Source: Berberis thunbergii (taxonomy: Eukaryota > Streptophyta > Magnoliopsida > Ranunculales > Berberidaceae). Taken from it: 64,000 nt of DNA. This document shows, in pieces, positions 19,272 through 47,188 of this stretch (position 1 is the first letter of the stretch; every line of letters begins with the position of its first letter). The notes beneath the pieces were generated by a model. That model made no database searches. It was not told where the DNA came from and was given only the letters and a program-made list of their open reading frames with translations. The translations under genes were made by a program, and so were the position numbers. The stretch is taken from assembly GCA_003290165.1 (NCBI GenBank), contig QNQO01000672.1:434001-498000 (forward strand), in the 5' to 3' direction.

Positions 19272-19671
19272 GTCCATGTAACACCACTACTTTTTAATGA
19301 CAAAAAAAAATTATGCAACTAAAATTCAATTGAAAATTTTTATTTTAAAATCTTCTATCGTTTGACAAGTTGCATTTTTTGAAGTTCGCATAACTTTCTT
19401 TCTTCTACCGAATCTCGGGACGAGATTCTTTTGAGTTGTATATATTGTAGCACCCCGTAATTTTTGTACTTACTGAAAATATTTATATTTTGTGTAATCG
19501 TCTTCATTAAGTTATGGGCATACGTATAAGCTATTGGTTTGTCCATGTGATGTGTAGTTGTTTATTTAAGAATTAATTTCCTACTTACCTTCCTCTACCG
19601 AATCTCGGGACGAGATTCTTTTGAGTTGTATATATTGTAATACCCGCCTAATTAAAAAAAATTTCTTTTGT

Positions 19672-19900
19672 AAACCCTAATATTGATGGGTTGCTACTAA
19701 ATTGTATTTGGGCTCTATTTTTGGGCTTTTATTTAACTAATGATTAGGGTTTTATTTTGTGAGAGAGGGCGGGTGTTCTCAGAATTTTAGTGGGGGCGAA
19801 TAGCCACCCACTATATATAAAAAAAGAGAAACAAACAAAACCCTTTGTTTTATTCTCTTCTCTTGTTCTTCACATAGAGTTAGGGTTTCAGATCCTTGCT
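19672..19900 (+). promoter_or_regulatory. Promoter-like segment inside the concatemer LTR
   Basis: The LTR contains a telobox-like TAAACCCTAA (19671), AATGATTAGGGTTTT, and a TATA element CTATATATAA (19811-19820), followed by a pyrimidine-rich leader (TTTTATTCTCTTCTCTTG). It recurs in all five LTRs. Its position fits a U3/R boundary, or a promoter captured from a host gene together with the coding-like segment downstream. Confidence 0.55.
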
Positions 19901-20139
19901 CAACTCAACCCAATAGAAGAATAAGAAGAGAACAGAGAGCTGAGAGAATGGAGAAAGCAAAACAAGAATAGCCCTCTTCTTCTATTCCTATTTTTCTTGT
20001 TATAACTCTGCTGCAAGCCGATGTTGTTGTTAGTGGCTGAGATTTGATGCATCGGAGAGAAGAAAAAGAGTCTGTTTTTGGGTTCTGAAGCAGATTTATT
20101 GTTACCGATTGGTTCTTCTTCTTCTTTTTCGTTTCGTTG

Positions 20140-20840
20140 TCAGCAGAGTGGGGATGTGATTGTGATTGATAAGGCCAGTGGGAAGGTTTCAAAAATCGGG
20201 AGAGTGGTATTGGGTTAAAAAGTCAAGATTTGAGGGTGCGTATGTGAGATGTGAGGGGGAAGAGGGGATTTCTGGTGAAACCCCTGTGGTGGTTGATGCG
20301 GTGGTACGGATTGCTTCACCTGATAGGTATTTGAGACAATTCAGTAGGAAACATAAGGCAGGGAAGATTAATTCTGCTTCAGAGATTAAAATATAAAATG
20401 AAGATGATTTGGTGAAATCTACTAATGCCAATGCAGATAGGGTTAAAGCTGTTGTTAAAGAAGGGGGATTGATAATGAAATCACAGTTGTGGTTGATGGG
20501 TTAAAATCTGTTAAAGAGGGGGGTAGTTGGTTCTCAAACTCCGATTGTGATTAACGGTAATTGTGAGGAACAAAATGGTATACCAGAGATGTCTGCAAGG
20601 TGATTTACTCGTTCTGCTTTGAAACCCAAGGGAGAGCCAACAGAGGTTTCTGCTAAGTCTACATCTAGTGGGAGTTCAGTGGTATGAGATGACGCATGCA
20701 AAATGCAAGCAACCGCTAAGATGACAGTAAACTTTCAGACACAGTGAGTCCATTGAAAACTTCTTCAAAAAGGAAGAACACGTTTAAAGATTAGAAACAT
20801 GGTCAGCAGTCTATTAGTGTACATACTAAAGGTGAGTTTT
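20140..20840 (+). pseudogene. Captured coding-like segment in the LTR, family unknown
   Basis: Reading across minor frameshifts, all five LTRs preserve a protein-like sequence: GDVIVIDKASGKVSK, TPVVVDAVVRIASPDRYLRQ, FSRKHKAGKINSASE, NADRVKAVVKEGG, RFTRSALKPKGEPTEVSAKS, ending at a donor-like AAAGGTGAG. Composition (lysine/serine-rich, basic) suggests a nuclear protein, but I cannot assign a family. The clearest uninterrupted piece is in LTR5 at 35840-36118 (92 codons, starting MRCEGEEGIS). It follows the promoter-like segment, so a 5' gene portion may have been captured as a unit. Frameshifts at homopolymers mean the copies are unlikely to encode a full product. Confidence 0.5.
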
Positions 20841-22020
20841 CTTCATACTCCTTTTATATATATATATTTTTTTTATGAAATTGAGAATGTTGGGAGTGTT
20901 AATTATATATGAAATTGTAAGTTCTTTCTTCTGTCTCATCTCGCCCCTTTTGTTCTTTGATCGCAAAGCTTGCCCTGTTGTTGTTCCACATGGCGGGTTA
21001 GTTTGGGTTTTGTGTAGGTTTGGGTTTTTGAAAGTTGAGCTAATAGGCAGTCTATTGTTTTGTGCTTTTGGATGTTGCTTGTAGAGTTGGAGGATTGGTT
21101 CTTCATATATAGTCAAAATAGGATGTTTTTTTTTAGTTTATCTAAAATGTTACAGAAATCTTGAGGTGATAGTGACTTAATATTTATGATCATATCATGC
21201 CACTTTTGTTTGCAAAAGTGACTTCCTGTTGGGCATATGTTTATGCAACAAAAGTATGTTACCTATATTATTGTTTATGTGTCCCATAAGCTTAGCTACA
21301 CAATGTAATTAGTAATTGAATTGGTGCTCCAATTTGGCGTGGACTAATGTACCTCATGGTAGAAACAGTTAAACATTTATAAAAAAAAAAGGTTGAGGGG
21401 GTAGTGTACATGCACATTTATAATCTTAACATTGTTGAAGATTATGGCTTGTGGCGTTAGATAAACTGATTTAACAAAGATTTTCATAATGAATTAGAAA
21501 GCAAGTTGTTGTAAGACAACTTTGTTGTCACGCCCTGTCATTCTCTGCAACTTGTTAGAAGTGGTAGCTTAAGGGATAGTGTCTTGTCTGTATTAGTTTT
21601 ATGTATGGTTAAACCCTTATTTAGTTTAGGGTTAGAAGAAAATTTCCTAGTAATAGATATTGACTGGAATTTAACTGAGCACTTGTTTTAGTTTGAGTAT
21701 TTGTATTGTTAGGCGAATTGGTGTGCATATTGTTTTTCGTATGATGCAAAGAGATGAGATGTGTGAATTGACAATGTGTCAAACATTACTTTTCCCCAAA
21801 AGACTGGTGGATACTGTGACTGATTTATTTATGGTTGACAAAGCGTCACCATAAAAGAGTTTTGAGGATTAATTTATTTTTATGCTCGTTTCCACAACTC
21901 CGAAAAAAAAATGTGAAAAGAAAAGAAATTTTAGTATACAGACTTGCTTGTATACTTGTGATATTATTGGGTATGCAGACTTGCTTGCATATCAGTGTAC
22001 TTGCCAGTGATCGACCTTCG

Positions 22021-22310
22021 GATGAGATGACATGTTTCCTCGAGGTGGCACCCCACTTGGAACATGTACGCACCGAATGGTTTCGATGGCAAGGGCGGCA
22101 CACTTGGGTGAGGTGTGTTCGGTGCACCGTTCCATGTGTGTTCGGTTGTACATGTAGATTTAGGAAGAATGCTTGCCATGGATCGAACTACGGGTGAGAT
22201 GACATGTTCCTCGAGGTGGCACCCCACTTGGAACATGTACGCTCCGAGTGGTTTCGAAGGCAAGGGAGGCACACTTGGGTGAGGTGTGTTCGGCACAGGA
22301 GGAAAGTGCG
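22021..22310. repeat. 172-bp direct duplication within each LTR
   Basis: GATGAGATGACATGTT... starts at 22021 and again, diverged, at 22193, each copy containing CCTCGAGGTGGCACCCCACT. The minus strand therefore encodes a repeated GAYMFQVGCHLEEHVISP peptide in copies 1, 2, 3 and 5. LTR4 has lost both copies. Confidence 0.75.
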
Positions 22311-22958
22311 ATTGTGGAAAAGTTGCAAGATTTCTTGTGGTTTTGTATGTGCATGATTACCTTAAAGGAAGAACTAAATGTTCATTCAACCATTGAATGA
22401 GAACTAGATGTCTTCCTAAAGGGTAGAAAAATGTGTTTTGTTTAATACTTCAATAATAGGGAGTATGAATTGTATAGTTGTTGCATTTATGAGGATTGAC
22501 AACTCATAATTTTATTTATTAGTAATAAAGAATGCATATTTATTTATTAGGATGATAACACCATTGCCTCATTGAGGAACTACCTGATGGTGTGGTTATT
22601 AATTGTTTCGTTTATTTTAATGTTGTCATGTGTGGATATATTGATTTTGGGATGAAGATTTCTCACACCAGCTTATTGCTGACCCGAGTGAGCTTTTGCT
22701 TCTTGGGTACATTGCTTTTGGAATGTAGCCGAGTAGTCTTTCAGGTTTAGAGATTTTGAGCTGCAGTACTGGAGTTTCGCTAGTGAGCTAGCCATGCTAG
22801 TCTTCTCCGGGTTAGATTTTTATTTGTTTCAGATGTTTAGTTCATGCTGCTATTTGTTTCTGTTATTATTGAATTCTCACGTCCGAGTTTTGGGGGAAAC
22901 GGATAATCCTACGTGGATTTTTAGGATTTTCGTTTCCTTCGAAAATCGGGGCGTGACA

Positions 22959-23262
22959 GTTTGGTATCAGAGCATTTGGTTAGCCAAGGCTGGGGTAGAG
23001 TCTAGGTGATCCTCGGAATGTGGATATGGGAGAGTAGTAGTGTGACTATCTACAGATAAAGTGACAAGGGTGAACCTTGAACTTTTATTATTGTTTCTTT
23101 TCTTCGTGAATCTCGATATTAGATTTCTATGACTAACTTATTTTAATGTCAATCGTGGATGACATTATTTCGTGTCATTTTTTTTTAGTAGTTTGTTATC
23201 TTGAATCTTTAGTTAACCCTTTTCGCGAATCTCGGGACGAGATTCTTTTGAGTTGTATATAT
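22959..23262 (+). other. Concatemer interior 1 with tRNA-iMet primer-binding site
   Basis: 304 bp. TGGTATCAGAGC starts at 22962, three bases after the LTR end, and is followed by about 250 bp of non-coding sequence. The 3' end has the 8-bp-stem palindrome GAATCTCGGGACGAGATTC. Where a polypurine tract is expected there is only TTTTGAGTTGTATATAT. No coding potential for gag or pol. Confidence 0.85.
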
Positions 23263-26200
23263 TGTAACACCACTAGTTTTAATGACAAAAAAAAAATTTA
23301 TGCAACTAAAATTCAATTGAAAATTTTTATTTTAAAATCTTCTTTCGTTTGACAAGTTGCATTTTTTTGAAGTTCGCATAACTTTCTTTCTTCTACCGAA
23401 TCTCGGGACGAGATTCTTTTGAGTTGTATATATTGTAGCACCCCGTAATTTTTGTACTTACTGAAAAATATTTATAATTTTGTGTGATCGTCTTCATTAA
23501 GTTATGGGCATACGTATAAGCTATTGGTATGTCAATGTGATGTGTAGTTGTTTATTTAAGAATTAATTTCCTACTTACCTTCCTCTACCGAATCTCGGGA
23601 CGAGATTCTTTTGAGTTGTATATATTGTAATACCCGCCTAATTAAATAAAATAAAAAAATTCTTTTGTAAACCCTAATATTGATGGGTTGCTACTAAATT
23701 GTATTTGGGCTCGATTTTTGGGCTTTTATTTAACTAATGATTAGGGTTTTATTTTGTGAGAGAGGGCGGGTGTTCTCAGAATTTTAGTGGGGGCGAATAG
23801 CCACCCACTATATATAAAAAAAGAGAAACAAACAAAACCCTTTGTTTTATTTTCTTCTCTTGTTCTTCACATAGAGTTAGGGTTTCAGATCCTTGCTCAA
23901 CTCAACCCAATAGAAGAAGAAGAAGAGAACTGAGAACTGAGAGAATGGAGAAAGCAAAGCAAGAATAGCCCTCTTCTTCTATTCCTATTTTTCTTGTTAT
24001 AACTCTACTGCAGGCCGATGTTGTTGTTAGTGGCTGAGATCTGATGCATCAGAGAGAAGAAGAAGAGTCTGTTTTTGGGTTCTGAAGCAGATTTATTGTT
24101 ACCCCGATTGGTTCTTCTTCTTCTTTTTCGTTTCGTTGTCAGCAGAGTGGGGATGTGATTGTGATTGATAAGGCCAGTGGGAAGGTTTCGAAAATGGGGA
24201 GAGTGGTATTGGGTTGAAAAGTGAAGATCTGAGGGTGCGTATGTGAGATGTGAGGGGGAAGAGGGGATTTCTTGTCAAACCCCTGTGGTGGTTGATGCGG
24301 TGGTTCGGATTGCTTCACCTGATAAGTATTTGAGACAATTCAGTAGGAAACATAAGGCAGGGAAGATTAATTCTGCTTCAGAGATTAAAAAAAAAATGAA
24401 GATGATTTGGTGAAATCTACTAATGCCTATGCAGATAGGGTTAAAGCTGTTGTTAAAGAAGGGGGGGGGATTGATAATGAAATCACAGTTGTGGTTGATG
24501 GGTTAAAATTTGTTAAAGAGGGGGGTAGTTGGTTCTCAAACTCCGATTGTGATTAACGGTAATTGTGAGGAACAAAATGGTATACCAGAGATGTCTGCAA
24601 GGTGATTTACTCGTTCTGATTTGAAACCCAAGGGAGAGCCAACAGAGGTTTCTGCTAAGTCTACATCTAGTGGGAGTTCAGTGGTATGAGATGACGCATG
24701 CAAAATGCAAGCAACCGCTAAAGATGACAGTAAACTTTCAGACACAGTGAGTCCATTGAAAACTTCTTCAAAAAGGAAGAACACGTTTAAAGATTAGAAA
24801 CATGGTCAGCAGTCTATTAGTGTACATACTAAAGGTGAGTTTTCTTCATACTCCTTTTATATATATTTTTTTATTTTATGAAATTGAGAATGTTGGGAGT
24901 GTTAATTATATATGAAATTGTAAGTTCTTTCTTCTGTCTCATCTCGCCCCTTTTGTTCTTTGATCGCAAAGCTTGCCCTGTTGTTGTTCCACATGGAGGG
25001 TTAGTTTGGGTTTTGTGTAGGTTTGGGTTTTTGAAAGTTGAGCTAATAGGCAGTCTATTGTTTTGTGCTTTTGGATGTTGCTTGTAGAGTTGGAGGATTG
25101 GTTCTTCATATATAGTCAAAATAGGATGTTTTTTTTTAGTTTATCTAAAATGTTACAGAAATCTTGAGGTGATAGTGACTTAATATTTATGATCATATCA
25201 TGCCACTTTTGTTTGCATAACAGACTTCCTGTTGGGCATATGTCTATGCAACAAAAGTATGCAGCCTATATTATTGTTTATGTGTCCCATAAGCTTAGCT
25301 ACACAATGTAATTAGTAATTGAATTGGAGCTCCAATTTGGTGTGGACTAATGTACCTCATGGTAGAAACAGTTAAACATTTAAAAAAAAAAAAAGGTTGA
25401 GGGGGTAGTGTACATGCACATTTATAATCTTAACATTGTTGAAGATTATGGCTTGTGGCGTTAGATAAACTGATTTAACAAAGATTTTCATAATGAATTA
25501 GAAAGCAAGTTGCTGTAAGACAACTTTGTTGTCACGCCCTGTCATTCTCTGCAACTTGTTAGAAGTGGTAGCTTAAGGGATAGTGTCTTGTCTGTATTAG
25601 TTTTATGTATGGTTAAACCCTTATTTAGTTTAGGGTTAGAAGAAAATTTCCTAGTAATAGATATTGACTGGAATTTAACGAAGCACTTGTTTTAGTTTGA
25701 GTATTTGTATTGTTAGGCGAATTGGTGTGCATATTATTTTTCGTATGATGCAAAGAGATGAGATGTGTGAATTGACAATGTGTCAAACATTACTTTTCCC
25801 CAAAAGACTGGTGGATACTGTGACTGATTTATTTATGGTTGACAAAGCGTCACCATAAAAGAGTTTTGAGGATTTATTTATTTTTATGCTCTTTTCCACA
25901 ACTCCGAAAAAAAAATGTGAAAAGAAAAGAAATTTTAGTATACAGACTTGCTTGTATACTTGTGATATTATTGGGTATGCAGACTTGCTTGCATATCAGT
26001 GTACTTGCCAGTGATCGACCTTCGGGTGAGATGACATGTTCCTCGAGGTGGCACCCCACTTGGAACATGTACGCTCCGAATGGTTTCGATGGCAAGGGCG
26101 GCACATTTGGGTGAGGTGTGTTCGGTGCACCGTTCCATGTGTGTTCGGTTGTACGTGTAGATTTAGGAAGAATGCTTGCCATGGATCGAACTACGGGTGA

Positions 26201-26963
26201 GATGACATGTTCCTCGAGGTGGCACCCCACTTGGAACATGTACGCTCCGAGTGGTTTCGAAGGCAAGGGAGGCACACTTGGGTGAGGTGTGTTCGGCACA
26301 GGAGGAAAGTGCGATTGTGGAAAAGTTGCAAGATTTCTTGTTGTTTTGTATGTGCATGATTACCTTAAAGGAAGAAACTAAATGTTCATTCAACCATTGA
26401 ATGAGAACTAGATGTCTTCCTAAAGGGTAGAAAAATGTGTTTTGTTTAATACTTCAATAATAGGGAGTATGAATTGTATAGTTGTTGCATTTATGAGGAT
26501 TGACAACTCATAAATTTTATTTATTAGTAATAAAGATTGCATATTTATTTATTAGGATGATAACACCATTGCCTCATTGAGGAACTACCTGATGGTGTGG
26601 TTATTAATTGTTTCGTTTATTTTAATGTTGTCATGTGTGGATATATTGATTTTGGGATGAAGATTTCTCACACCAGCTTTATTGCTGACCCGAGTGAGCT
26701 TTTGCTTCTTGGGTACATTGCTTTTGGAATGTAGCCGAGTAGTCTTTCAGGTTTAGAGATTTTGAGCTGCAGTACTGGAGTTTCGCTAGTGAGCTAGCCA
26801 TGCTAGTCTTCTCCGGGTTAGATTTTATTTGTTTCAGATGTTTAGTTCATGCTGCTATTTGTTTCTGTTATTATTGAATTCTCACGTCCGAGTTTTGGGG
26901 GAAACGGATAATCCTACGTGGATTTTTAGGATTTTCGTTTCCTTCGAAAATCGGGGCGTGACA
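23263..26963 (+). repeat. Concatemer LTR 2
   Basis: 3701 bp and almost identical to LTR3: the 141-codon minus-strand frame at 25874-26299 has the same translation as at 29875-30300. They share TTGTCAAACCCC, GGAGCTCCAATTTGG and ATATGTCTATGC variants absent from LTR1, LTR4 and LTR5. Confidence 0.88.
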
Positions 26964-27266
26964 GTTTGGTATCAGAGCATTTGGTTAGCCAAGGCTGGGG
27001 TAGAGTCTAGGTGATCCTCGGAATGTGGATATGGGAGAGTAGTAGTGTGACTATCTACAGATAAAGTGACAAGGGTGAACCTTGAACTTTTATTATTGTT
27101 TCTTTTCTTCGTGAATCTCGATATTAGATTTCTATGACTAACTTATTTTAATGTCAATCGTGGATGACATTATTTCGTGTCATTTTTTTTAGTAGTTTGT
27201 TATCTTGAATCTTTAGTTAACCCTTTTCGCGAATCTCGGGACGAGATTCTTTTGAGTTGTATATAT
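26964..27266 (+). other. Concatemer interior 2 with primer-binding site
   Basis: 303 bp, with the same layout as interior 1; TGGTATCAGAGC starts at about 26967. Confidence 0.85.
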
Positions 27267-30200
27267 TGTAACACCACTAGTTTTTAATGACAAAAAAAAA
27301 ATTTATGCAACTAAAATTCAATTGAAAATTTTTATTTTAAAATCTTCTTTCGTTTGACAAGTTGCATTTTTTTGAAGTTCGCATAACTTTCTTTCTTCTA
27401 CCGAATCTCGGGACGAGATTCTTTGAGTTGTATATATTGTAGCACCCCCGTAATTTTTGTACTTACTGAAAATATTTATAATTTTGTGTGATCGTCTTCA
27501 TTAAGTTATGGGCATACGTATAAGCTATTGGTATGTCAATGTGATGTGTAGTTGTTTATTTAAGAATTAATTTCCTACTTACCTTCCTCTACCGAATCTC
27601 GGGACGAGATTCTTTTGAGTTGTATATATTGTAATACCCGCCTAATTAAATAAAATAAAAAAAAATTCTTTTGTAAACCCTAATATTGATGGGTTGCTAC
27701 TAAATTGTATTTGGGCTCGATTTTTGGGCTTTTATTTAACTAATGATTAGGGTTTTATTTTGTGAGAGAGGGCGGGTGTTCTCAGAATTTTAGTGGGGGC
27801 GAATAGCCACCCACTATATATAAAAAAAGAGAAACAAACAAAACCCTTTGTTTTATTTTCTTCTCTTGTTCTTCACATAGAGTTAGGGTTTCAGATCCTT
27901 GCTCAACTCAACCAATAGAAGAAGAAGAAGAGAACTGAGAACTGAGAGAATGGAGAAAGCAAAGCAAGAATAGCCCTCTTCTTCTATTCCTATTTTTCTT
28001 GTTATAACTCTACTGCAGGCCGATGTTGTTGTTAGTGGCTGAGATCTGATGCATCAGAGAGAAGAAGAAGAGTCTGTTTTTGGGTTCTGAAGCAGATTTA
28101 TTGTTACCGATTGGTTCTTCTTCTTCTTTTTCGTTTCGTTGTCAGCAGAGTGGGGATGTGATTGTGATTGATAAGGCCAGTGGGAAGGTTTCGAAAATGG
28201 GGAGAGTGGTATTGGGTTGAAAAGTGAAGATCTGAGGGTGCGTATGTGAGATGTGAGGGGGAAGAGGGGATTTCTTGTCAAACCCCTGTGGTGGTTGATG
28301 CGGTGGTACGGATTGCTTCACCTGATAAGTATTTGAGACAATTCAGTAGGAAACATAAGGCAGGGAAGATTAATTCTGCTTCAGAGATTAAAAAAAAATG
28401 AAGATGATTTGGTGAAATCTACTAATGCCTATGCAGATAGGGTTAAAGCTGTTGTTAAAGAAGGGGGGGGGATTGATAATGAAATCACAGTTGTGGTTGA
28501 TGGGTTAAAATTTGTTAAAGAGGGGGGTAGTTGGTTCTCAAACTCCGATTGTGATTAACGGTAATTGTGAGGAACAAAATGGTATACCAGAGATGTCTGC
28601 AAGGTGATTTACTCGTTCTGATTTGAAACCCAAGGGAGAGCCAACAGAGGTTTCTGCTAAGTCTACATCTAGTGGGAGTTCAGTGGTATGAGATGACGCA
28701 TGCAAAATGCAAGCAACCGCTAAAGATGACAGTAAACTTTCAGACACAGTGAGTCCATTGAAAACTTCTTCAAAAAGGAAGAACACGTTTAAAGATTAGA
28801 AACATGGTCAGCAGTCTATTAGTGTACATACTAAAGGTGAGTTTTCTTCATACTCCTTTTATATATATTTTTTTATTTTATGAAATTGAGAATGTTGGGA
28901 GTGTTAATTATATATGAAATTGTAAGTTCTTTCTTCTGTCTCATCTCGCCCCTTTTGTTCTTTGATCGCAAAGCTTGCCCTGTTGTTGTTCCACATGGAG
29001 GGTTAGTTTGGGTTTTGTGTAGGTTTGGGTTTTGAAAGTTGAGCTAATAGGCAGTCTATTGTTTTGTGCTTTTGGATGTTGCTTGTAGAGTTGGAGGATT
29101 GGTTCTTCATATATAGTCAAAATAGGATGTTTTTTTTTAGTTTATCTAAAATGTTACAGAAATCTTGAGGTGATAGTGACTTAATATTTATGATCATATC
29201 ATGCCACTTTTGTTTGCATAACAGACTTCCTGTTGGGCATATGTCTATGCAACAAAAGTATGCAGCCTATATTATTGTTTATGTGTCCCATAAGCTTAGC
29301 TACACAATGTAATTAGTAATTGAATTGGAGCTCCAATTTGGTGTGGACTAATGTACCTCATGGTAGAAACAGTTAAACATTTAAAAAAAAAAAAAGGTTG
29401 AGGGGGTAGTGTACATGCACATTTATAATCTTAACATTGTTGAAGATTATGGCTTGTGGCGTTAGATAAACTGATTTAACAAAGATTTTCATAATGAATT
29501 AGAAAGCAAGTTGCTGTAAGACAACTTTGTTGTCACGCCCTGTCATTCTCTGCAACTTGTTAGAAGTGGTAGCTTAAGGGATAGTGTCTTGTCTGTATTA
29601 GTTTTATGTATGGTTAAACCCTTATTTAGTTTAGGGTTAGAAGAAAATTTCCTAGTAATAGATATTGACTGGAATTTAACGAAGCACTTGTTTTAGTTTG
29701 AGTATTTGTATTGTTAGGCGAATTGGTGTGCATATTATTTTTCGTATGATGCAAAGAGATGAGATGTGTGAATTGACAATGTGTCAAACATTACTTTTCC
29801 CCAAAAGACTGGTGGATACTGTGACTGATTTATTTATGGTTGACAAAGCGTCACCATAAAAGAGTTTTGAGGATTTATTTATTTTTATGCTCTTTTCCAC
29901 AACTCCGAAAAAAAAATGTGAAAAGAAAAGAAATTTTAGTATACAGACTTGCTTGTATACTTGTGATATTATTGGGTATGCAGACTTGCTTGCATATCAG
30001 TGTACTTGCCAGTGATCGACCTTCGGGTGAGATGACATGTTCCTCGAGGTGGCACCCCACTTGGAACATGTACGCTCCGAATGGTTTCGATGGCAAGGGC
30101 GGCACATTTGGGTGAGGTGTGTTCGGTGCACCGTTCCATGTGTGTTCGGTTGTACGTGTAGATTTAGGAAGAATGCTTGCCATGGATCGAACTACGGGTG

Positions 30201-30965
30201 AGATGACATGTTCCTCGAGGTGGCACCCCACTTGGAACATGTACGCTCCGAGTGGTTTCGAAGGCAAGGGAGGCACACTTGGGTGAGGTGTGTTCGGCAC
30301 AGGAGGAAAGTGCGATTGTGGAAAAGTTGCAAGATTTCTTGTTGTTTTGTATGTGCATGATTACCTTAAAGGAAGAAACTAAATGTTCATTCAACCATTG
30401 AATGAGAACTAGATGTCTTCCTAAAGGGTAGAAAAATGTGTTTTGTTTAATACTTCAATAATAGGGAGTATGAATTGTATAGTTGTTGCATTTATGAGGA
30501 TTGACAACTCATAAATTTTATTTATTAGTAATAAAGATTGCATATTTATTTATTAGGATGATAACACCATTGCCTCATTGAGGAACTACCTGATGGTGTG
30601 GTTATTAATTGTTTCGTTTATTTTAATGTTGTCATGTGTGGATATATTGATTTTGGGATGAAGATTTCTCACACCAGCTTTATTGCTGACCCGAGTGAGC
30701 TTTTGCTTCTTGGGTACATTGCTTTTGGAATGTAGCCGAGTAGTCTTTCAGGTTTAGAGATTTTGAGCTGCAGTACTGGAGTTTCGCTAGTGAGCTAGCC
30801 ATGCTAGTCTTCTCCGGGTTAGATTTTTATTTGTTTCAGATGTTTAGTTCATGCTGCTATTTGTTTCTGTTATTATTGAATTCTCACGTCCGAGTTTTGG
30901 GGGAAACGGATAATCCTACGTGGATTTTTAGGATTTTCGTTTCCTTCGAAAATCGGGGCGTGACA
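27267..30965 (+). repeat. Concatemer LTR 3
   Basis: 3699 bp. The closest relative is LTR2, from which it differs mainly by short homopolymer indels, indicating a recent unit duplication. Confidence 0.88.
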
Positions 30966-31268
30966 GTTTGGTATCAGAGCATTTGGTTAGCCAAGGCTGG
31001 GGTAGAGTCTAGGTGATCCTCGGAATGTGGATATGGGAGAGTAGTAGTGTGACTATCTACAGATAAAGTGACAAGGGTGAACCTTGAACTTTTATTATTG
31101 TTTCTTTTCTTCGTGAATCTCGATATTAGATTTCTATGACTAACTTATTTTAATGTCAATCGTGGATGACATTATTTCGTGTCATTTTTTTTAGTAGTTT
31201 GTTATCTTGAATCTTTAGTTAACCCTTTTCGCGAATCTCGGGACGAGATTCTTTTGAGTTGTATATAT
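30966..31268 (+). other. Concatemer interior 3 with primer-binding site
   Basis: 303 bp, with TGGTATCAGAGC at about 30969 and the terminal palindrome before 31268. Confidence 0.85.
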
Positions 31269-34200
31269 TGTAACACCACTAGTTTTTAATGACAAAAAAA
31301 AATTTATGCAACTAAAATTCAATTGAAAATTTTTATTTTAAAATCTTCTTTCGTTTGACAAGTTGCATTTTTTTGAAGTTCGCATAACTTTCTTTCTTCT
31401 ACCGAATCTCGGGACGAGATTCTTTTGAGTTGTATATATTGTAGCACCCCGTAATTTTTGTACTTACTGAAAATATTTATAATTTTGTGTGATCGTCTTC
31501 ATTAAGTTATGGGCATACGTATAAGCTATTGGTATGTCCATGTGATGTGTAGTTGTTTATTTAAGAATTAATTTCCTACTTACCTTCCTCTACCGAATCT
31601 CGGGACGAGATTCTTTTGAGTTGTATATATTGTAATACCCGCCTAATTAAATAAAATAAAAAAAAATTCTTTTGTAAACCCTAATATTGATGGGTTGCTA
31701 CTAAATTGTATTTGGGCTCGATTTTTGGGCTTTTATTTAACTAATGATTAGGGTTTTATTTTCTGAGAGAGGGCGGGTGTTCTCAGAATTTTAGTGGGGG
31801 CGAATAGCCACCCACTATATATAAAAAATAGAGAAACAAACAAAACCCTTTGTTTTATTTTCTTCTCTTGTTCTTCACATAGAGTTAGGGTTTCAGATCC
31901 TTGCTCAACTCAACCCAATAGAAGAAGAAGAAGAGAACTGAGAACTGAGAGAATGGAGAAAGCAAAGCAAGAATAGCCCTCTTCTTCTATTCCTATTTTT
32001 CTTGTTATAACTCTACTGCAGGCCGATGTTGTTGTTAGTGGCTGAGATCTGATGCATCAGAGAGAAGAAGAAGAAGAGTCTGTTTTTGGGTTCTAAAGCA
32101 GATTTATTGTTACCGATTGGTTCTTCTTCTTCTTTTTCGTTTCGTTGTCAGCAAAGTGGGGATGTGATTGTGATTGATAAGGCCAGTGGGAAGGTTTCGA
32201 AAATGGGGAGAGTGGTATTGGGTTGAAAAGTGAAGATCTGAGGGTGCGTATGTGAGATGTGAGGGGGAAGAGGGGATTTCTAGTGAAATCCCTGTGGTGG
32301 TTGATGCGGTGGTACGGATTGCTTCACCTGATAAGTATTTGAGACAATTCAGTAGGAAACATAAGGCAGGGAAGATTAATTCTGCTTCAGAGATTAAAAA
32401 AAAAATGAAGATGATTTTGTGAAATCTACTAATGCCAATGCAGATAGGGTTAAAGCTGTTGTTAAAGAAGGGGGGGGGATTGATAATGAAATCGCAGTTG
32501 TGGTTGATGGGTTAAAATCTGTTAAAGAGGGGGGTAGTTGGTTCTCAAACTCCGATTGTGATTAACGGTAATTGTGAGGAACAAAATGGTATACCTGAGA
32601 TGTCTGCAAGGTGATTACTCGTTCTGCTTTGAAACCCAAGGGAGAGCCAACAGAGGTTTCTGCTAAGTCTACATCTAGTGGGAGTTCAGTGGTATGAGAT
32701 GACGCATGCAAAATGCAAGCAACCGCTAAAGATGACAGTAAACTTTCAGACACAGTGAGTCCATTGAAAACTTCTTCAAAAAGGAAGAACACGTTTAAAG
32801 ATTAGAAACATGGTCAGCAGTCTATTAGTGTACATACTAAAGGTGAGTTTTCTTCATACTCCTTTTATATATATATATTTTTTTTATGAAATTGAGAATG
32901 TTGGGAGTGTTAATTATATATGAAATTGTAAGTTCTTTCTTCTGTCTCATCTCGCCCCTTTTGTTCTTTGATCGCAAAGCTTGCCCTGTTGTTGTTCCAC
33001 ATGGAGGGTTAGTTTGGGTTTTGTGTAGGTTTGGGTTTTGCGTAGGTTTGGGTTTTTGAAAGTTGAGCTAATAGGCAGTCTATTGTTTTGTGTTTTTGGA
33101 TGTTGCTTGTAGAGTTGGAGGATTGGTTCTTCATATATAGTAAAAATAGGATGTTTTTTTTAGTTTATCTAAAATGTTACAGAAATCTTGAGGTGATAGT
33201 GACTTAATATTTATGATCATATCATGCCACTTTTGTTTGCAAAACTGACTTCCTGTTGGGCATATGTTTATGCAACAAAAGTATGTAGCCTATATTATTG
33301 TTTATGTGTCCCAAAAGCTTAGCTACACAATGTAATTAGTAATTGAATTGGTGCTCCAATTTGGCGTGGACTAATGTACCTCATGGTTGAAACAGTTAAA
33401 CATTTAAATAAAAAAAAGTTGAGGGGGTAGTGTACATGCACATTTATAATCTTAACATTGTTGAAGATTATGGCTTGTGGCGTTAGATAAACTGATTTAA
33501 CAAAGATTTTCATAATGAATTAGAAAGCAAGTTGCTGTAAGACAACTTTGTTGTCACGCCCTGTCATTCTCTGCAACTTGTTAGAAGTGGTAGCTTAAGG
33601 ATAGTGTCTTGTCTGTATTAGTTTTATGTATGGTTAAACCCTTATTTAGTTTAGGGTTAGAAGAAAATTTCCTAGTAATAGATATTGACTGGAATTTAAC
33701 TGAGCACTTGTTTAGTTTGAGTATTTGTATTGTTAGGCGAATTGGTGTGCATATTGTTTTTCGTATGATTCAAAGAGATGAGATGTGTGAATTGACAATG
33801 TGTCAAACATTACTTTTCCCCAAAAGACTGGTGGATACTGTGACTGATTTATTTATAGTAGACAAAGCGTCACCATAAAAGAGTTTTGAGGATTTATTTG
33901 TATGTGCATGATACTGTGACTGATTTATTTCTTGTTGTTTTGTATGTGCATGATTACCTTAAAGGAAGAAAGTAAATGTTCATTCAACCATTGAATGAGA
34001 ACTACATGTCTTCCTAAAAGGTAGAAAAATGTGTTTTGTTTAATACTTCAATAATAGTGAGTATGAATTGTATAGTTGTTGCATTTATGAGGATTGACAA
34101 CTCATAAATTTTATTTATTAGTAATAAAGAATGCATATTTATTTATTAGGATGATAACACCATTGCCTCATTGAGGAACTACCTGATGGTGTGGTTATTA

Positions 34201-34558
34201 ATTGTTTGTTTATTTTAATGTTGTCATGTGCGGATATATTGATTTTGGGATGAAGATTTCTCACACCAGCTTTATTGCTGACCCGAGTGAGCTTTTGCTT
34301 CTTAGGTACATTCCTTTTGGAATGTAGCCGAGTAGTCTTTCAGGTTTAGAGATTTTGAGCTGCAGTACTGGAGTTTCGCTAGTGAGCTAGCCATGCTAGT
34401 CTTCTCCGGGTTAGATTTTTATTTGTTTCAGATGTTTAGTTCATGCTGCTATTTGTTTCTGTTATTATTGAATTCTCACGTCCCGAGTTTTGGGGGAAAC
34501 GGATAATCCTACGTGGATTTTTAGGATTTTCGTTTCCTTCGAAAATCGAGGCGTGACA
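31269..34558 (+). repeat. Concatemer LTR 4 with internal deletion
   Basis: 3290 bp. Relative to the other copies it has lost about 410 bp net around 33895-33935, including both 172-bp repeats. The junction holds filler resembling adjacent sequence (TATGTGCATGA plus TACTGTGACTGATTTATT). Confidence 0.87.
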
Positions 34559-34860
34559 GTTTGGTATCAAAGCATTTTGTTAGCCTAGGCTGGGGTAGAG
34601 TCTAGGTGATCCTCGGAATGTGGATATGGGAGAGTATTAGTGTGACTGTCTACAGATAAAGTGACAAGGGTGAACCTTGAACTTTTATTATTGTTTCTTT
34701 TCTTCGTGAATCTCGATATGAGATTTCTATGACTAACTTATTTTAATGTCAATCGTGGATGACATTATTTCGTGTCGTTTTTTTTAGTAGTTTGTTATCT
34801 TGAATCTTTAGTTAACCCTTTTCGCGAATCTCGGACGAGATTCTTTTGAGTTGTATATAT
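34559..34860 (+). other. Concatemer interior 4 with altered primer-binding site
   Basis: 302 bp. The primer site reads TGGTATCAAAGC (one mismatch to tRNA-iMet), and the terminal palindrome has lost one G (CTCGGACGAG). Confidence 0.82.
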
Positions 34861-37800
34861 TGTAACACACTACTTTTTAATGACAAAAAAAAAATTTATG
34901 CAACTAAAATTCAATTGAAAATTTTTATTTTAAAATCTTCTTTTTTTTTTGACAAGTTGCATTTTTTTGAAGTTCGCATACTTTCTTTCTTCTACCGAAT
35001 CTCGGGACGAGATTCTTTTGAGTTGTATATATTGTAGCACCCCGTAATTTTTGTACTTACTGAAAATATTTATAATTTTGTGTGATCGTCTTCATTAAGT
35101 TATGGGCATACGTATAAGCTATTGGTTTGTCCATGTGATGTGTAGTTGTTTATTTAAGAATTAATTTCCTACTTACCTTCCTCTACCGAATCTCGGGACG
35201 AGATTCTTTTGAGTTGTATATATTGTAATACCCGCCTAATTAAATAAAATAAAATAAAATTCTTTTGTAAACCCTAATATTGATGGGTTGCTACTAAATT
35301 GTATTTGGGCTCGATTTTTGGGCTTTTATTTAACTAATGATTAGGGTTTTATTTTGTGAGAGAGGGGGGGTGTTCTCAGAATTTTAGTGGGGGCGAATAG
35401 CCACCCACTATATATAAAAAAAAAGAAACTAACAAAACCCTTTGTTTTATTTTCTTCTCTTGTTCTTCACATAGAGTTAAGGTTTCAGATCCTTGCTCAA
35501 CTCAACCCAATAGAAGAAGAAGAAGAGAACTGAGAACTGAGAGAATGGAGAAAGCAAAGCAAGAATAGCCCACTTCTTCTATTCCTATTTTTCTTATTAT
35601 AACTCTGCTGCAGGCCGATGTTGTTGTTAGTGGCTGAGATCTGATGCATCGGAGAGAATAAGAATAGTCTGTTTTTGGGTTCTGAAGCAGATTATTGTTA
35701 CCGATTGGTTCTTCTTCTTCTTTTTCGTTTCGTTGTCAGCAGAGTGGGGATGTGATTGTGATTGATAAGGCCAGTGGGAAGGTTTCGAAAATGGGGAGAG
35801 TGGTATTGGGTTGAAAAGTGAAGATCTGAGGGTGCGTATGTGAGATGTGAGGGGGAAGAGGGGATTTCTAGTGAAACCCCTGTGGTGGTTGATGCGATGG
35901 TACGGATTGCTTCACCTGATAGGTATTTGAGACAATTCAGTAGGAAACATAAGGCAGGGAAGATTAATTCTGCTTCAGAGTTTAAAAAAAATGAAGATGA
36001 TTTGGTGAAATCTACTAATGCCAATGCAGATAGGGTTAAAGTTGTTGTTAAAGAAGGGGGGATTGATAATGAAATCAAAGTTGTGGTTGATGGGTTAAAT
36101 CTGTTAAAGAGGGGGTAGTTGGTTCTGAAACTCCGATTGTGATTAACGGTAATTGTGAGGAACAAAACGGTATACCAGAGATATCTGCAAGGTGATTTAC
36201 TCGTTCTGCTTTGAAACCAAAGGGAGAGCCAACAGAGGTTTCTGCTAAGTCTACATCTAGTGGAGTTCAGTGGTATGAGATGACGCATGCAAAATGCAAG
36301 CAACCACTAAAGATGACAGTAAACTTTCGGACACAGTGAGTCCATTGAAAACTTCTTCAAAAAGGAAGAACACGTTTAAAGATTAGAAACATGGTCAGCA
36401 GTCTATCAGTGTACATACTAAAGGTGAGTTTCTTCATACTCCTTTTATATATATATATATATTTGTATGAAATTGAGAATGTTGGGAGTGTTAATTATAT
36501 ATGAAATTGTAAGTTCTTTCTTCTGTCTCATCTCGCCCCTTTTGTTCTTTGATCGCAAAGCTTGCCCTGTTGTTTTTCCACATGGAGGGTTAGTTTGGGT
36601 TTTGTGTAGGTTTGGGTTTTGTGTAGGTTTGGGTTTTGAAAGTTGAGCTAATAGGCAGTCTATTGTTTTGTGCTTTTGGATGTTGCTTGTAGAGTTGGAG
36701 GATTGGTTCTTCATATATAGTCAAAATAGGATGTTTTTTTTAGTTTATCTAAAATGTTACAGAAATCTTGAGGTGATAGTGACTTAATATTTATGATCAT
36801 ATCATGCCACTTTTGTTTGCAAAACTGACTTCCTGTTGGGCATATGTTTATGCAACAAAAGTATGTAGCCTATATTATTGTTTATGTGTCCCAAAAGCTT
36901 AGCTACACAATGTAATTAGTAATTGAATTGGTGCTCCAATTTGGCGTGGACTAATGTACCTCATGGTTGAAACAGTTAAACATTTAAAATAAAAAAAAGG
37001 TTGAGGGGGTAGTGTACATGCACATTTATAATCTTAACATTGTTGAAGATTATGGCTTGTGGCGTTAGATAAACTGATTTAACAAAGATTTTCATAATGA
37101 ATTAGAAAGCAAGTTGCTGTAAGACAACTTTGTTGTCACGCCCTGTCATTCTCTGCAACTTGTTAGAAGTGGTAGCTTAAGGGATAGTGTCTTGTCTGTT
37201 TTAGTTTTATGTATGATTAAACCCTTATTTAGTTTAGGGTTTGAAGAAAATTTCCTAGTAATAGATATTGACTGGAATTTAACGAAGCACTTGTTTTAGT
37301 TTGAGTATTTGTATTGTTATGCGAATTGGTGTGCATATTGTTTTTCGTATGATGCAAAGAGATGAGATGTGTGAATTGACAATGTGTCAAACATTACTTT
37401 TCCCCAAAAGACTGGTGGATACTGTGACTGATTTATTTATGGTTGACAAAGCGTCACCATAAAAGAGTTTTGAGGATTTATTTATTTTTATGCTCTTTTC
37501 CACAACTCCGAAAAAAAATGTGAAAAGAAAAGAAATTTTAGTATACAGACTTGCTTGTATACTTGTGATATTATTGGGTATGCAGACTTGCTTGCATATC
37601 AGTGTACTTGCCAGTGATCGACCTTCGAGTGAGATGACATGTTCCTCGAGGTGGCACCCCCTTGGAACATGTATGCTTCGAATGGTTTCGATGGCAAGGG
37701 CGGCACACTTGGGTGAGGTGTGTTCGGTGCACCATTCCATGTGTGTTCGGTTGTACGTGTAGATTTCGGAAGAATATTTGCCATGGATCGAACTTCGGGT

Positions 37801-38531
37801 GAGATGACATGTTCCTCGAGGTGGCACCCCACTTGGAACATGTACGCTCCGAGTGGTTTCGAAGGCAAGGGAGGCACACTTGGGTGAGGTATGTTCGGCA
37901 CAGGAGGAGAGTGCGATTGTGGAAAAGTAGCAAGATTTCTTGTTGTTTTGTATGTGCATGATTACCTTAAAGGAAGAAACTAAATGTTCATTCAACCATT
38001 GAATGAGAACTACATGTCTTCCTAAAGGGTAGAAAAATGTGTTTTGTTTAATAATTCAATAATAGTGATTATGAATTGTATAGTTGTTGCATTTATGAGG
38101 ATTGACAACTCATAAATTTTATTTATTAGTAATAAAGAATGCATATTTATTTATTAGGATGATAACACCATTGCCTCATTGAGGAACTACCTGATGGTGT
38201 GGTTATTAATTGTTTTGTTTATTTTAATGTTGTCATGTGCGGATATATTGCTGACCCGAGTGAGCTTTTGCTTCTTGGGTACATTCCTTTTGGAATGTAG
38301 CCGAGTAGTCTTTCAGGTTTAGAGATTTTGGGCTGCAGTACTAGAGTTTCGCTAGTGAGCTAGCCATGCCAGTCTTCTCCGGGTTAGATTTTTATTTGTT
38401 TCAGATGTTTAGTTCATGCTGCTATTTGTTTCTGTTATTATTAAATCCTCACGTCCCGAGTTTTGGGGGAAACAAATAATCCTACGTGGATTTTTAGGAT
38501 TTTCGTTTCCTTTGAAAATCGGGGCGTGACA
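34861..38531 (+). repeat. Concatemer LTR 5 (outer 3' LTR)
   Basis: 3671 bp, ending GGGGCGTGACA directly before the GTCCA duplication, with no primer site after it. It shares start variants with LTR1 and some variants (CCCAAAAGCTTAG, GGTTGAAACAG) with LTR4. The longest version of the internal coding-like segment is here (35840-36118). Confidence 0.88.
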
Positions 38532-40845
38532 GTCCAGCCGAGCACGGATTCCGTTCATCTCAGCCATCGAATACTCAAGCTAAGCAAAAGATCTATCTCG
38601 CGCTACCTCCACCTCCATAGTAGTGCATGAGCAGCCCTAGTTGCCTTATCCTGCTCTGCGCCCTACACTTTCAACACGTCCAACTGACGAAGAACATGAG
38701 AAAATACCAATAATTGCACTGCCATCTTCCTCTCAAGAGCAGCCACCTGTCCACGAGTGACCTGATAGTCTGACCCCATCACACAAACATAAGTAAGGTG
38801 ATTCATCCCATCCATTATCTGCTTGAGGCCATGGTCGAGATGACTGTTAGACTCTTGTACAGGCATCAAAGCCTTCTCCACCGTCTACATATGCCACTCA
38901 CTAATCAACTTGTGTGCACTATACTGCACATCAATCTCAGTAAACCAACTAAACTTCCCATTCGACTAAATACGGATGTCTTCTAGGTTGGGCTCTTTCC
39001 AACTAACCCGTGGATGAAGAACTCGAGGATCAGGAAGTATGGAGTACCCACCCCCAACAGTCAAAAAAATGGTTGAAGTAGCGGTAATGACAGAAAAACC
39101 ACTCTTGCATTTTCTCTGTGAAGCGGTCGTGGCAGGAGTGGAACAAGCAGCAGTAACATCAAAAGTTAGACAGACAGGAAGAGAAACATGGAACTCCATG
39201 GGGTCATCAACATGAACGGGAGAATGAGGAGGAAGATCCTCAGAACTTTGACCATGATTGGTGACCTCTTGTTCGTACATGGATTAAATTCGAAGTCGGC
39301 CAGGGTCTTTGTTGTATTTGGATCCTTAGACTGCTCCACAACAAGTTGAAACATCATTTTGTCAATAACTTGAGGGTCATCGTCAGACCACTCGACAATG
39401 TCGAGCTCACCATAAGCTGAAAGAAGCATATTTTCATTATCGTCCAACGGACGAGTTACCTCCTTTTTTCTTCTCTCCATCACCAGATTCTTTTCCTCGA
39501 CTTTCTAAAAAAGGCGATCTTCTTTCCTACCCTCCTTATCAGAAGTGCTTAGACAAGGAACCGACCAAGTAGTACCACGAGTGAAACTGGATAGTCATTT
39601 TCTCTTGGAAACATGGCCAAGGCTTATCACCAATTGGTTTGACGGACTAGCAGGCCTCGGAAGCTTCCTCTTCTAGGTGGTCAGGCCAGCAACACCAATG
39701 CTAACAGAAGCATCGAGATCTATAACATCTTTGTTGAACGTCACTTTCCCATCAAAGCTAGATCACCAACACTATTAGGAAGAACACGAGCAGCATCTCA
39801 ACAGCTCGAGATTCAGTAAGCAACGCCCATTCCGCCTCGTCCATAGTGTACAAGCCACTACACGCAACAACGTCCTTAGCAAGGAACGATTCCACAACAA
39901 CCACAGGAAGCTTCAACAAATTTTCACTGATCACCTGTTCTTCCACAAACATTTGCAAATCCTTTCGTCTGTTAGATACTCAAAACAACTGCATAATCTG
40001 ACGACCTCGCAAGTTGAAATGACCGGAGTTGACAACAGAATAAAACCAAAATCTCGACCAGTCCTTGATGTCATCGTTAAGTTTCCCAAAATAGACAAGA
40101 GAGCAAAGGAAGCAAATATTCTTGGTCACCACAAGACCAACCACCGAATGCAAAACCCTAACAGTCAAGGGAATGACAGTAAGAATGGCTCTCGCATAAG
40201 TAGAAACCATCACTCTCCAGCTGTTATGATGCATTTGAGTAGAGGAATGCCCAAAAAATATAAATAGTCCAAACATATCTCTAGGACAAGAAATTGAAGG
40301 TCAGACTGGAACATACACTGGTAAAGTCCAATATAACTTGTCCTTGGACGAGAAGGACTGTCATTTTGCCTAGGCAGAACTATCTCAAGGTCGGCTGGCA
40401 GAGAATAGTCGGAACAAACACAATCTAACGTCGTTTGCGAAGCCTTATTGGGTGAAAAGAACGCCTCACAAATGCTAAGCGCCTCTCCATCTAGTATATT
40501 TTCGGTAGACACTGAAAAGAAATGAAAAAACAAGGAGAACAAAGAAGAAGGAAGAAGAATAAACCCTAATTTAAAAGATAGCTTAAACATATAAACAAAG
40601 CTATCGCGTCCCCTTTTATAGAGCCAAGCAACAAAGAGACTGCTCATAGGACGTCGTTCGAGATATGATGGCTACACGAAATCCTAAAATGCATGCAAAA
40701 ATGAACGGATGAATGAGAGGAAATGCTACCAACCTCTCCAAAAGCTGTTAACAACATTAAATACAATGCAATGAAGAAATCAAAAGTTCAGCCGACGTCG
40801 AGTTAGTGACCACGTCAGCATACCCACTAACTAAAGGGGAGTAGC
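38532..40845 (-). pseudogene. Gypsy interior, continued: antisense ORF N-terminal part with putative gypsy-type transposon (PF04195-like) domain
   Basis: On the minus strand, 40647-40210 encodes SLPADLEIVLPRQNDSPSRP, YIGLYQCMFQSDLQFLVLEI and YFLGIPLLKCI. This resembles the plant 'putative gypsy type transposon' domain, found in ORFs opposite to gag-pol in some gypsy elements. It continues through 40276-39980 (RAILTVIPLTVRVLHSVVGL), an acidic segment at 39483-39166 (TTKTLADFEFNP), and a helical segment at 38881-38663 (HLDHGLKQIMDGMNHLTYV). Many stops and frameshifts show it is dead. The concatemer inserted near its coiled-coil region. CTAAAGGGGAGTAGC just before 40846 is the polypurine tract of the element. 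Confidence 0.6.
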
Positions 40846-42055: not shown

Positions 42056-42935
42056 TTCAGTCCAAGCCTAATATTTGAACCAAATACACGACCCACTAGA
42101 GGCGAAAATATCCATTTCCTTAAGTCATTTACGTGGACCCCTTTGTCCTACAAAATTGGGTTTTCTAATATGGGCTTGAGCTAATCTTATAAGGGACTCT
42201 CATAAAGGATATGCAAAACCTATTACTGCATGGCCCAACTCATATTTCTAGAACCTATGTATTCATACCAACTTCACTTAAGCAAATGGTTGTGAACATG
42301 TGATGTAACACCCACACAAATGTCGCAAAAATCTCTTTCTATTTGAAGTGAACCACCTCACCAAAGGAGAATGCGGATGAAGCAGCATAATGATTAGTAC
42401 AACTGAGGAAGAAGCTTACGGTGAATTTATTGAATGATTGAATAGAGAAGATTTAGTTCTCTAGCTAATAACAGAGAAGAGTGCAATTTTAGACCTTTAG
42501 GCTTGATCTTTGAAAAAAAGTAAAACACAGGTAGGAGGTGCTGATCACGTTGACTTTATATTTAACTAGTGTACTCGCCATGTCGTTGGCACGAGTACAG
42601 TGTCATGTCTGATCTTTGGGTTGTGCTTTCAGCACTTTTCAAATAGGTCACTAAATTACTAAATATGAATAGAAATTATTGTTTACCAAAACATTGATTA
42701 ATTATATTTTTGTCATTCTCATCAATGTACTATTATTATTAATTTATACGTATCTTCATTGTAATATACTACTTTCACCTTAATTTTGTTGGGGCTTAGC
42801 TCCCTGTCAATTTGACTGTCATAACTACCCCAACCCAATAAAACATGTTATTTCTAGAGGATAAAAAATGTTTACTTTGATTTAATATGATAATAAAACT
42901 CAAAATTTTGATTTAATTTATAGGCTTGTAGGCCC
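42056..42935. other. No gene recognised
   Basis: AT-rich intergenic sequence. No ORF with recognisable content and no repeat structure that I could define. Confidence 0.5.
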
Positions 42936-43530
42936 AGAATTTTTCCCATACATATGTAAGATTAGGTTGAACTGGCAGTATAAGAGAAAAATTGAGCATT
43001 CTTAAAAAACCAAAGTCTTGAAGAGGAACATTTTGCAATTTGGCGAATGGAGATGGGAGGGGCATTTTTGGGATTTGGTGATTGGGGAAGGGGCAATTTC
43101 AAAATTTTGTGAAATGGGTAGAGGTAGTATCGTAATTTTCTGAATGATGGGCATTTTCCTAATTTGGCAAATGGGATGAGAGGGTGTTTTCAAGATTTGG
43201 TGAATGGGAAGGGGTAAGTTCAGAATTTTTCCCATACATATATAAGATTAGGTTGAACTGGCAGTATAAGAGAAAAATTGAGCATTCTTAAAAAACCAAA
43301 GTCTTGAAGAGGAAATTTTTCCATTTTGGCGAATGGAGATGGGAGGGGCACTTTTGGGATTTGGTGATTGGGGAAGGGGCAATTTCAAAATTTTGTGAAA
43401 TGGGTAGAGGTAGTATCATAATTTCTGAATGATGGGCATTTTCCTAATTTGGCAAATGGGATGAGAGGGTGTTTTCAAGATTTGGTGAATGGGAAGGGGT
43501 AAGTTCAGAATTTTTGCAAATGGGTTGGGG
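42936..43530. repeat. 286-bp tandem duplication of G-rich minisatellite-like sequence
   Basis: AGAATTTTTCCCATACATAT begins units at 42936 and 43222 (286-bp period), and the two copies are nearly identical. A third partial unit follows from about 43508 (AGAATTTTTGCAAATGGG). Each unit is itself built of shorter degenerate repeats (TTTGGYGAATGGGAAGGGG) about 40-50 bp apart. Confidence 0.8.
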
Positions 43531-47186: not shown

Positions 47187-47188
47187 AC

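What the first reader, a model, noticed from the sequence alone, without database searches (positions are those of the whole stretch)
19277..38531. Five-LTR, four-interior concatemer in one target duplication
A 19.3-kb block of LTR-interior-LTR-interior-LTR-interior-LTR-interior-LTR is flanked by a single GTCCA duplication. Tandem pairs sharing an LTR are known from unequal recombination, but a five-LTR array is unusual. Here each interior is only about 303 bp against LTRs of about 3.7 kb, so the array behaves like a 4-kb macrosatellite seeded by a retrotransposon. The minimal interior retains only the primer site and the 3' terminal segment.
Basis: partly seen in the sequence, partly recalled or inferred. 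Interest (0 to 1): 0.9.

Follow-up and report, generated by a model that had tools for sequence, protein, structure and literature searches.

The report
Stepwise-grown tandem array of plant retrotransposon
A jumping element that inserted once in a plant chromosome appears to have been copied head to tail into a 19-kb row of five long terminal repeats; such rows are known in plants, but small differences between these copies show part of the order in which this one grew.

Summary
Window 19277-38531 holds five direct LTRs (four of about 3.7 kb; L4 is 3.29 kb after a deletion) alternating with four 302-304 bp interiors. One GTCCA duplication flanks the block and none flanks an inner LTR. The interior begins with a tRNA-iMet-type primer site; no purine tract precedes the downstream LTR.

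The form (five LTRs, four interiors, one duplication) is published for small maize TRIMs (PMC4717578), and tandems of long elements are called common in plants (PMC11899658), so this is a new member of a known kind.

Its added value is a partial growth record. L2 and L3 differ by 1 substitution in 3694 sites, L1 and L5 by 91 in 3633. L2/L3 resemble L4 on the 5' side and L1 on the 3' side (permutation p = 0.00035), the polarity that unequal crossing-over predicts. This disfavours insertion as a ready-made five-LTR concatemer. Whether a three-LTR founder inserted as such is unresolved, the L2/L3 pair could include an assembly duplicate, and no genome search answered. 'Macrosatellite' is not supported by four units.

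The parts
19272..19276 (.). target-site duplication GTCCA, left copy
19277..22958 (+). LTR 1 (3682 bp, TGTAACACC...GGGGCGTGACA)
22959..23262 (+). interior 1 (304 bp); same as I2 and I3 apart from one T more in a T run
22961..22973 (+). primer-binding site TTGGTATCAGAGC (tRNA-iMet type: assignment recalled; TGGTATCAGAGC is given as the Cassandra PBS in PMC7215508)
23263..26963 (+). LTR 2 (3701 bp)
26964..27266 (+). interior 2 (303 bp)
27267..30965 (+). LTR 3 (3699 bp); 1 substitution and 10 homopolymer indels from LTR 2
30966..31268 (+). interior 3 (303 bp)
31269..34558 (+). LTR 4 (3290 bp) with internal deletion, junction near 33899-33927
34559..34860 (+). interior 4 (302 bp); 7 substitutions from I1-I3; primer site has 1 mismatch
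34861..38531 (+). LTR 5 (3671 bp)
38532..38536 (.). target-site duplication GTCCA, right copy
23227..23266 (+). 40-bp junction motif (3' end of interior plus first LTR bases); 14 copies in the array: one at each of the 4 interior/LTR junctions and two inside the head of each of the 5 LTRs
19809..19822 (+). TATA-like site CACTATATATAAAA in LTR 1; copies at 23806, 27812, 31813 and 35406
   Evidence: promoter function is inference

Best explanation
One non-coding LTR retrotransposon (LTR about 3.7 kb, interior about 0.3 kb) integrated once in a flowering-plant chromosome and left one GTCCA duplication. The row then grew in place by unequal recombination between misaligned LTRs of sister chromatids or homologues. 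Shown: four clearly different LTR lineages (L1, L2/L3, L4, L5), an L2/L3 lineage whose 5' part is nearest L4 and whose 3' part is nearest L1, and an L2/L3 pair that is almost identical (a very recent doubling, if the assembly is right). Inferred: crossing-over as the exchange (gene conversion could give part of the pattern), and the first step from two to three LTRs, whose timing relative to insertion is not resolved. No function of the array is proposed; it is taken as a product of recombination.
For: Single flanking duplication and none at inner LTRs. Flanks joined over one GTCCA give a 69-residue stop-free stretch on the minus strand across the junction, weak support for a simple empty site. 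Unequal divergence: L2-L3 1/3694, I1-I3 without substitutions, I4 7/302 from them, L1-L2 56/3678, L2-L4 54/3264, L1-L5 91/3633. Mosaic polarity: of the 53 sites where L3 agrees with just one of L1 and L4, 23 of 27 left of LTR columns 1140-1157 join L4 (downstream) and 20 of 26 to the right join L1 (upstream); permutation p = 0.00035 with free cut point. An insertion-type unequal crossover predicts this order. The 5 substitutions uniting L2-L4 against L1/L5 all lie at or below column 1072, the 6 uniting L1-L3 against L4/L5 all at or above 2056.
Against: Step 1 is not resolved: L1, L4 and L5 fit a star (chi-square p = 0.077) and the change point for L4 is weak (p = 0.05, at columns 3487-3532). 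By counts alone L3 with L1 and L4 also fits a star (29, 24 and 18 sites, p = 0.28); it is the position of the sites that speaks for the mosaic. Placed between L1 and L5, L3 changes at columns 2447-2482 (p = 0.0016), not at 1150. L2/L3-specific substitutions cluster (13 of 16 in columns 1020-2110, permutation p = 0.0012, window width chosen after seeing the data), which plain crossing-over does not predict. Conflicting sites: substitutions at 2446-2447 (L1=L4) and indels at 394-395 (L1=L2), 2151 (L1=L4) and 3445 (L1=L5). No outgroup copy could be obtained, so states are not polarised. The L2/L3 doubling could be an assembly error.
Confidence: 0.75

Rival explanations
1. The tandem was made during reverse transcription (template switching, or transcription through a one-LTR circle) and inserted ready-made.
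For: One duplication around the block fits equally. The mechanism is proposed for Triticeae elements in PMC1950507 (passages) and left open for rice tandems in PMC11899658 (discussion). L1, L4 and L5 do not reject a star.
Against: A ready-made five-LTR insert predicts about equal divergence of all LTRs; L2-L3 has 1 difference and L1-L5 91, and L3 with L1 and L5 rejects a star (26, 47 and 21 sites, p = 0.0023). It remains open for a three-LTR founder.
Confidence: 0.17
2. Two or more neighbouring insertions recombined, deleting the DNA between them.
For: PMC1950507 gives this as the origin of the vast majority of complex elements identified earlier (passages).
Against: Such products lack matching outer duplications (same paper); here GTCCA flanks both ends, and the joined flanks share a stop-free stretch across the junction (weak).
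Confidence: 0.03
3. Assembly artefact: one unit is a false duplication.
For: L2 and L3 differ by 1 substitution but 10 indels, all in homopolymers, a ratio unlike the other pairs (for example L1-L2 49 substitutions and 15 indels), which looks like consensus noise.
Against: The lineages L1, L2/L3, L4 and L5 differ by 43-74 substitutions, so at most the L2/L3 pair is affected; separate noise in L2 and L3 also fits two truly separate copies.
Confidence: 0.15
4. Equalisation by gene conversion, not duplication, made L2 and L3 alike within an older five-LTR row.
For: The clustered L2/L3-specific sites suggest that conversion acts on this row.
Against: It would have to cover about 3.7 kb of LTR and the neighbouring interiors with 1 substitution left.
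Confidence: 0.1

Closest known systems
Tandemly arrayed TRIMs (TA-TRIM), maize Zma-SMART L5I4 (PMC4717578, one section and passages read)
   Same: Five LTRs and four interiors inside one 5-bp duplication; no coding capacity.
   Different: That array spans 862 bp by the coordinates given; this one is 19.3 kb with 3.3-3.7-kb LTRs, outside the TRIM size range.
Cassandra long tandem arrays (PMC7215508, results part 1 and discussion read) and maize Wukong (PMC4528315, opening text and one section read)
   Same: Alternating LTR and short interior; 3, 4, 6 or 7 LTRs in Wukong, up to 13 in Cassandra; Cassandra has the same primer-site string.
   Different: Short elements; Cassandra carries 5S rRNA sequence (no Rfam match at gathering cut-off here) and its array units were described as almost identical, while here the units differ and can be partly ordered.
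Tandem LTR-retrotransposons of rice and other plants (PMC11899658: background, results and discussion read)
   Same: Long elements sharing inner LTRs; 10 of 28 selected rice cases have perfect 5-bp duplications.
   Different: All 28 selected rice cases contain coding domains; here the interior is 0.3 kb and non-coding. The mechanism was left open there.
LARD-type non-autonomous elements, e.g. Medicago Mtr77 (PMC2533021, passages read)
   Same: Non-autonomous; Mtr77 is filed as a LARD with a degenerate interior of about 200 bp, so a long element with a tiny interior has a precedent.
   Different: The passages seen give no LTR length for Mtr77, and the word 'tandem' has no occurrence in that text.

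Membership tests
Tandem LTR-retrotransposon array (PMC11899658 sense) | alternating LTRs and interiors, starting and ending with an LTR, same orientation | tested here: met
Tandem LTR-retrotransposon array (PMC11899658 sense) | one 5-bp target duplication around the whole block | tested here: met
   GTCCA at both ends, none at inner LTRs
LTR retrotransposon | LTRs ending TG...CA | tested here: met
LTR retrotransposon | tRNA primer-binding site after the 5' LTR | tested here: met
   TTGGTATCAGAGC 2 bases after the LTR in I1-I3, 1 mismatch in I4
LTR retrotransposon | polypurine tract before the 3' LTR | tested here: not met
   ...TTTTGAGTTGTATATAT before each of L2-L5; the tract may have decayed or be atypical, the other features stand
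TRIM | no coding domain and 100-300 bp interior | tested here: met
   302-304 bp, at the upper edge; no Pfam family above its cut-off in 10 frames searched (8 of the 16 frames of 60+ residues over L1 and I1 listed, and 2 from L5); one weak match, DUF7808 at E 0.46
TRIM | whole element under 540 bp with 100-250 bp LTRs (as given in PMC4528315) | tested here: not met
   LTRs of 3.3-3.7 kb
Cassandra | 5S rRNA sequence in the LTR | tested here: not met
   Rfam search of the window at gathering cut-off: 0 matches
Tekay lineage of Ty3 elements | pol and chromodomain phylogeny | not testable with these tools
   no pol is left in the interior; long LTRs and the primer site are only compatible
Macrosatellite | many kb-sized tandem units (definition recalled) | tested here: inconclusive
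   four units at one locus; genome search unanswered

The most novel reading that the evidence does not exclude
The row is a still-growing satellite seed: each added unit makes the next misalignment easier, so steps come ever faster (divergences of about 2.5%, 1.6%, 0.3% and 0.03% for insertion and steps 1-3 if the stepwise model holds), unit number is variable in the living species, and exchanges concentrate in LTR columns 1000-2100, where a conversion tract from a copy outside the row was also laid down.
Probability: 0.2. Interest if true: 0.5.

Novelty: new member of a known kind. Interest (0 to 1): 0.33.

Why it matters
How tandem LTR-retrotransposons arise is stated as open in a 2025 survey (PMC11899658, discussion), where the flanking variants of the haplotypes could not decide. 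Here the copies differ enough to read at least one exchange with its polarity, and a later near-identical pair, from a single sequence, so the recombination model makes a checkable prediction (two-, three- and four-LTR alleles at this site). The kind of structure itself is known.

Tried and rejected
Genome-wide search for other copies, arrays or an outgroup: the genome search was busy nine times and never answered, so family size, other arrays and polarised states are unknown.

A captured host-gene fragment in the LTR (a frame of about 98 residues at 35822-36115 in L5, broken by frameshifts or stops in other copies): 196 candidates shared words with it, none at E <= 0.01, and no Pfam match above cut-off in the frames searched. 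The protein search only admits proteins of 0.55-1.75 times the query length, so capture is neither shown nor excluded. The database does hold plant proteins.

A change-point test on L1- versus L5-private sites (p = 0.027, best cut at columns 3109-3219) was dropped as a test of step 1 because step 2 confounds it; the three-taxon version gave p = 0.05, so step 1 is reported as unresolved. An earlier fixed-cut Fisher test (p = 0.002 at column 1000, 0.076 at column 1400) used cuts chosen after seeing the data and is not relied on. Around the L4 deletion, columns 2640-3069 were left out of the site lists and columns 2640-3109 out; the L4 pairs still hold about 10 misaligned sites there.

Ages in years were not adopted: no rate for this species is known.
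Full report
What is there. The window block 19277-38531 is LTR-interior repeated four times plus a final LTR, all in + orientation. Refined borders: L1 19277-22958, I1 22959-23262, L2 23263-26963, I2 26964-27266, L3 27267-30965, I3 30966-31268, L4 31269-34558, I4 34559-34860, L5 34861-38531. The LTRs start TGTAACAC and end GTGACA. GTCCA flanks both ends, and no 5-bp repeat flanks an inner LTR. The interior has, two bases after the LTR, TTGGTATCAGAGC, exact in three of four copies and with one mismatch in I4; TGGTATCAGAGC is given as the PBS of Cassandra in PMC7215508. No coding domain was recognised in the frames searched (8 of the 16 frames of 60 or more residues over L1 and I1, and 2 from L5). 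The bases before the downstream LTR (TTTTGAGTTGTATATAT) are not a purine tract.

Host. An exon at 5319-5897 matches plant MATE transporters; of 728 matches the best 120 were listed, and the two best named ones are Sarracenia purpurea (73% identity) and Davidia involucrata (71%). So the window is from a flowering plant, perhaps an asterid; this rests on one exon, an orchid match follows at 69%, and the species is not identified. No tRNA and no Rfam family at gathering cut-off was found in the window.

Divergence is not star-like. In a global alignment of the five LTRs, substitutions are: L2-L3 1 of 3694 compared sites, L1-L3 55/3676, L1-L2 56/3678, L2-L4 54/3264, L3-L4 53/3264, L1-L4 66/3247, L4-L5 75/3237, L3-L5 81/3647, L2-L5 82/3647, L1-L5 91/3633 (the L4 pairs include about 10 misaligned sites at the deletion edge). 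Interiors 1-3 have no substitutions among them; interior 4 has 7 in 302. A row inserted ready-made should have about equal distances. L3 with L1 and L5 rejects equality (26, 47 and 21 sites, p = 0.0023); L3 with L1 and L4 (29, 24 and 18 sites, p = 0.28) and L4 with L1 and L5 (31, 41 and 23 sites, p = 0.077) do not.

Mosaic of L2/L3. An insertion-type unequal crossover between a downstream and an upstream LTR makes a new LTR whose 5' part is from the downstream one and whose 3' part is from the upstream one. L2/L3 show this order. Of the 53 sites where L3 agrees with just one of L4 and L1, 23 of 27 left of columns 1140-1157 join L4, and 20 of 26 to the right join L1; with the cut point free, 20,000 label shuffles give p = 0.00035. 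Placed between L1 and L5, L3 also changes sides, but at columns 2447-2482 (p = 0.0016). Substitutions shared by L2, L3 and L4 against L1 and L5 (5 sites) end at column 1072; those shared by L1, L2 and L3 against L4 and L5 (6 sites) begin at column 2056. Against the simple picture stand substitutions at 2446-2447 uniting L1 with L4 and indels at 394-395 (L1 with L2), 2151 (L1 with L4) and 3445 (L1 with L5).

What the simple picture misses. Sixteen substitutions are specific to L2 and L3 against the other three, and 13 of them lie in columns 1020-2110 (scan permutation p = 0.0012, window width chosen after seeing the data), across the inferred exchange point. A conversion tract from a copy outside the row, an exchange with a divergent allele, or a unit since lost could each explain this; no donor could be sought.

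The three steps. Step 3 (L2/L3 doubling) is the youngest: 1 substitution, 95% interval about 0.0007-0.15%. If it was a crossover, it must lie between LTR column 3304 and column 275 of the next LTR, since L2 and L3 share the states that set them off from L1 and L4 outside that stretch (inference). Step 2 is dated by L2-L4 left of column 1000 (4/986), L1-L2 right of column 3070 (2/658) and I1-I3 (0/303): 6/1947, 0.31% (sum mine). Step 1 is not resolved: the star is not rejected and the change point for L4 (p = 0.05, columns 3487-3532) is not where a clean crossover would be read. If step 1 was a crossover near column 1000, the matching segments give 56/3526, 1.6% (sum mine). A three-LTR founder made in reverse transcription, as proposed in PMC1950507 (passages read), stays open.

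Artefact check. L2 and L3 differ by 10 indels, all in homopolymers, against 1 substitution, while L1-L2 has 49 substitutions and 15 indels outside the L4 deletion columns. This looks like consensus noise of the assembly and leaves open that one unit is a false duplicate. It cannot apply to the other lineages (43-74 substitutions).

Empty site. Joining 450 bases of each flank over one GTCCA gives a 69-residue stretch between stops on the minus strand that spans the junction. This is weak support, as such a stretch can occur by chance.

Literature. Six searches and reading show that the kind is known: TA-TRIMs in 35 of 43 plant genomes, including an L5I4 maize array with one duplication (PMC4717578, section 8 and passages read); Wukong with 3, 4, 6 and 7 LTRs (PMC4528315, opening text and one section read); Cassandra up to 13 LTRs (PMC7215508, abstract, results part 1 and discussion read); 10 three-LTR and 4 larger elements in A. 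thaliana (PMC5379124, passages); 266 potential tandems in a rice pangenome, 66% Tekay, with the origin left open (PMC11899658, abstract, background, results and discussion read). A long-type element with a degenerate interior of about 200 bp is mentioned for Medicago (Mtr77, PMC2533021, passages). I did not see a tandem array of this LTR-to-interior ratio in these texts, but I saw only parts of most of them and no supplementary tables.

Verdict. An ordinary kind of structure, in an unusual size class, whose copies keep a partial record of growth, best explained by unequal recombination.

Noticed in passing
19410-19449, 19600-19639, 23227-23266 and 11 further copies: A 40-bp motif (GAATCTCG...TATATATTGTA) marks the interior/LTR junction and recurs twice inside the head of every LTR, followed by three different TGTARYACC-like LTR starts; 14 copies, 12 identical and 2 with a one-base deletion. 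It looks as if new LTR heads were added upstream of older ones.
   Followed up: partly
33899-33927: The L4 deletion junction carries a short filler that repeats sequence from both sides (GTATGTGCATGAT and ACTGTGACTGATTTATTT), as in templated end joining (mechanism recalled).
   Followed up: partly
20166-20830 in L1 and matching parts of L2-L5: Protein-like frames broken by frameshifts, followed by a GTGAGT-like site in the LTR; possible captured host-gene fragment, no relative found with one L5 frame.
   Followed up: partly
21998-22293 in L1 and equivalents in L2, L3, L5: A direct repeat of about 122 bp in two copies inside the LTR; absent from L4, where the deletion lies.
   Followed up: no
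46696-51714: An element with 481-491 bp direct repeats (92% identical) and Copia-type gag-pre-integrase and RVT_2 frames between them.
   Followed up: no
42935-43515: A direct tandem duplication with an offset of about 286 bp, 97% identical.
   Followed up: no
56195-57519: A direct tandem repeat of about 670 bp, 81% identical, with open frames on both strands.
   Followed up: no
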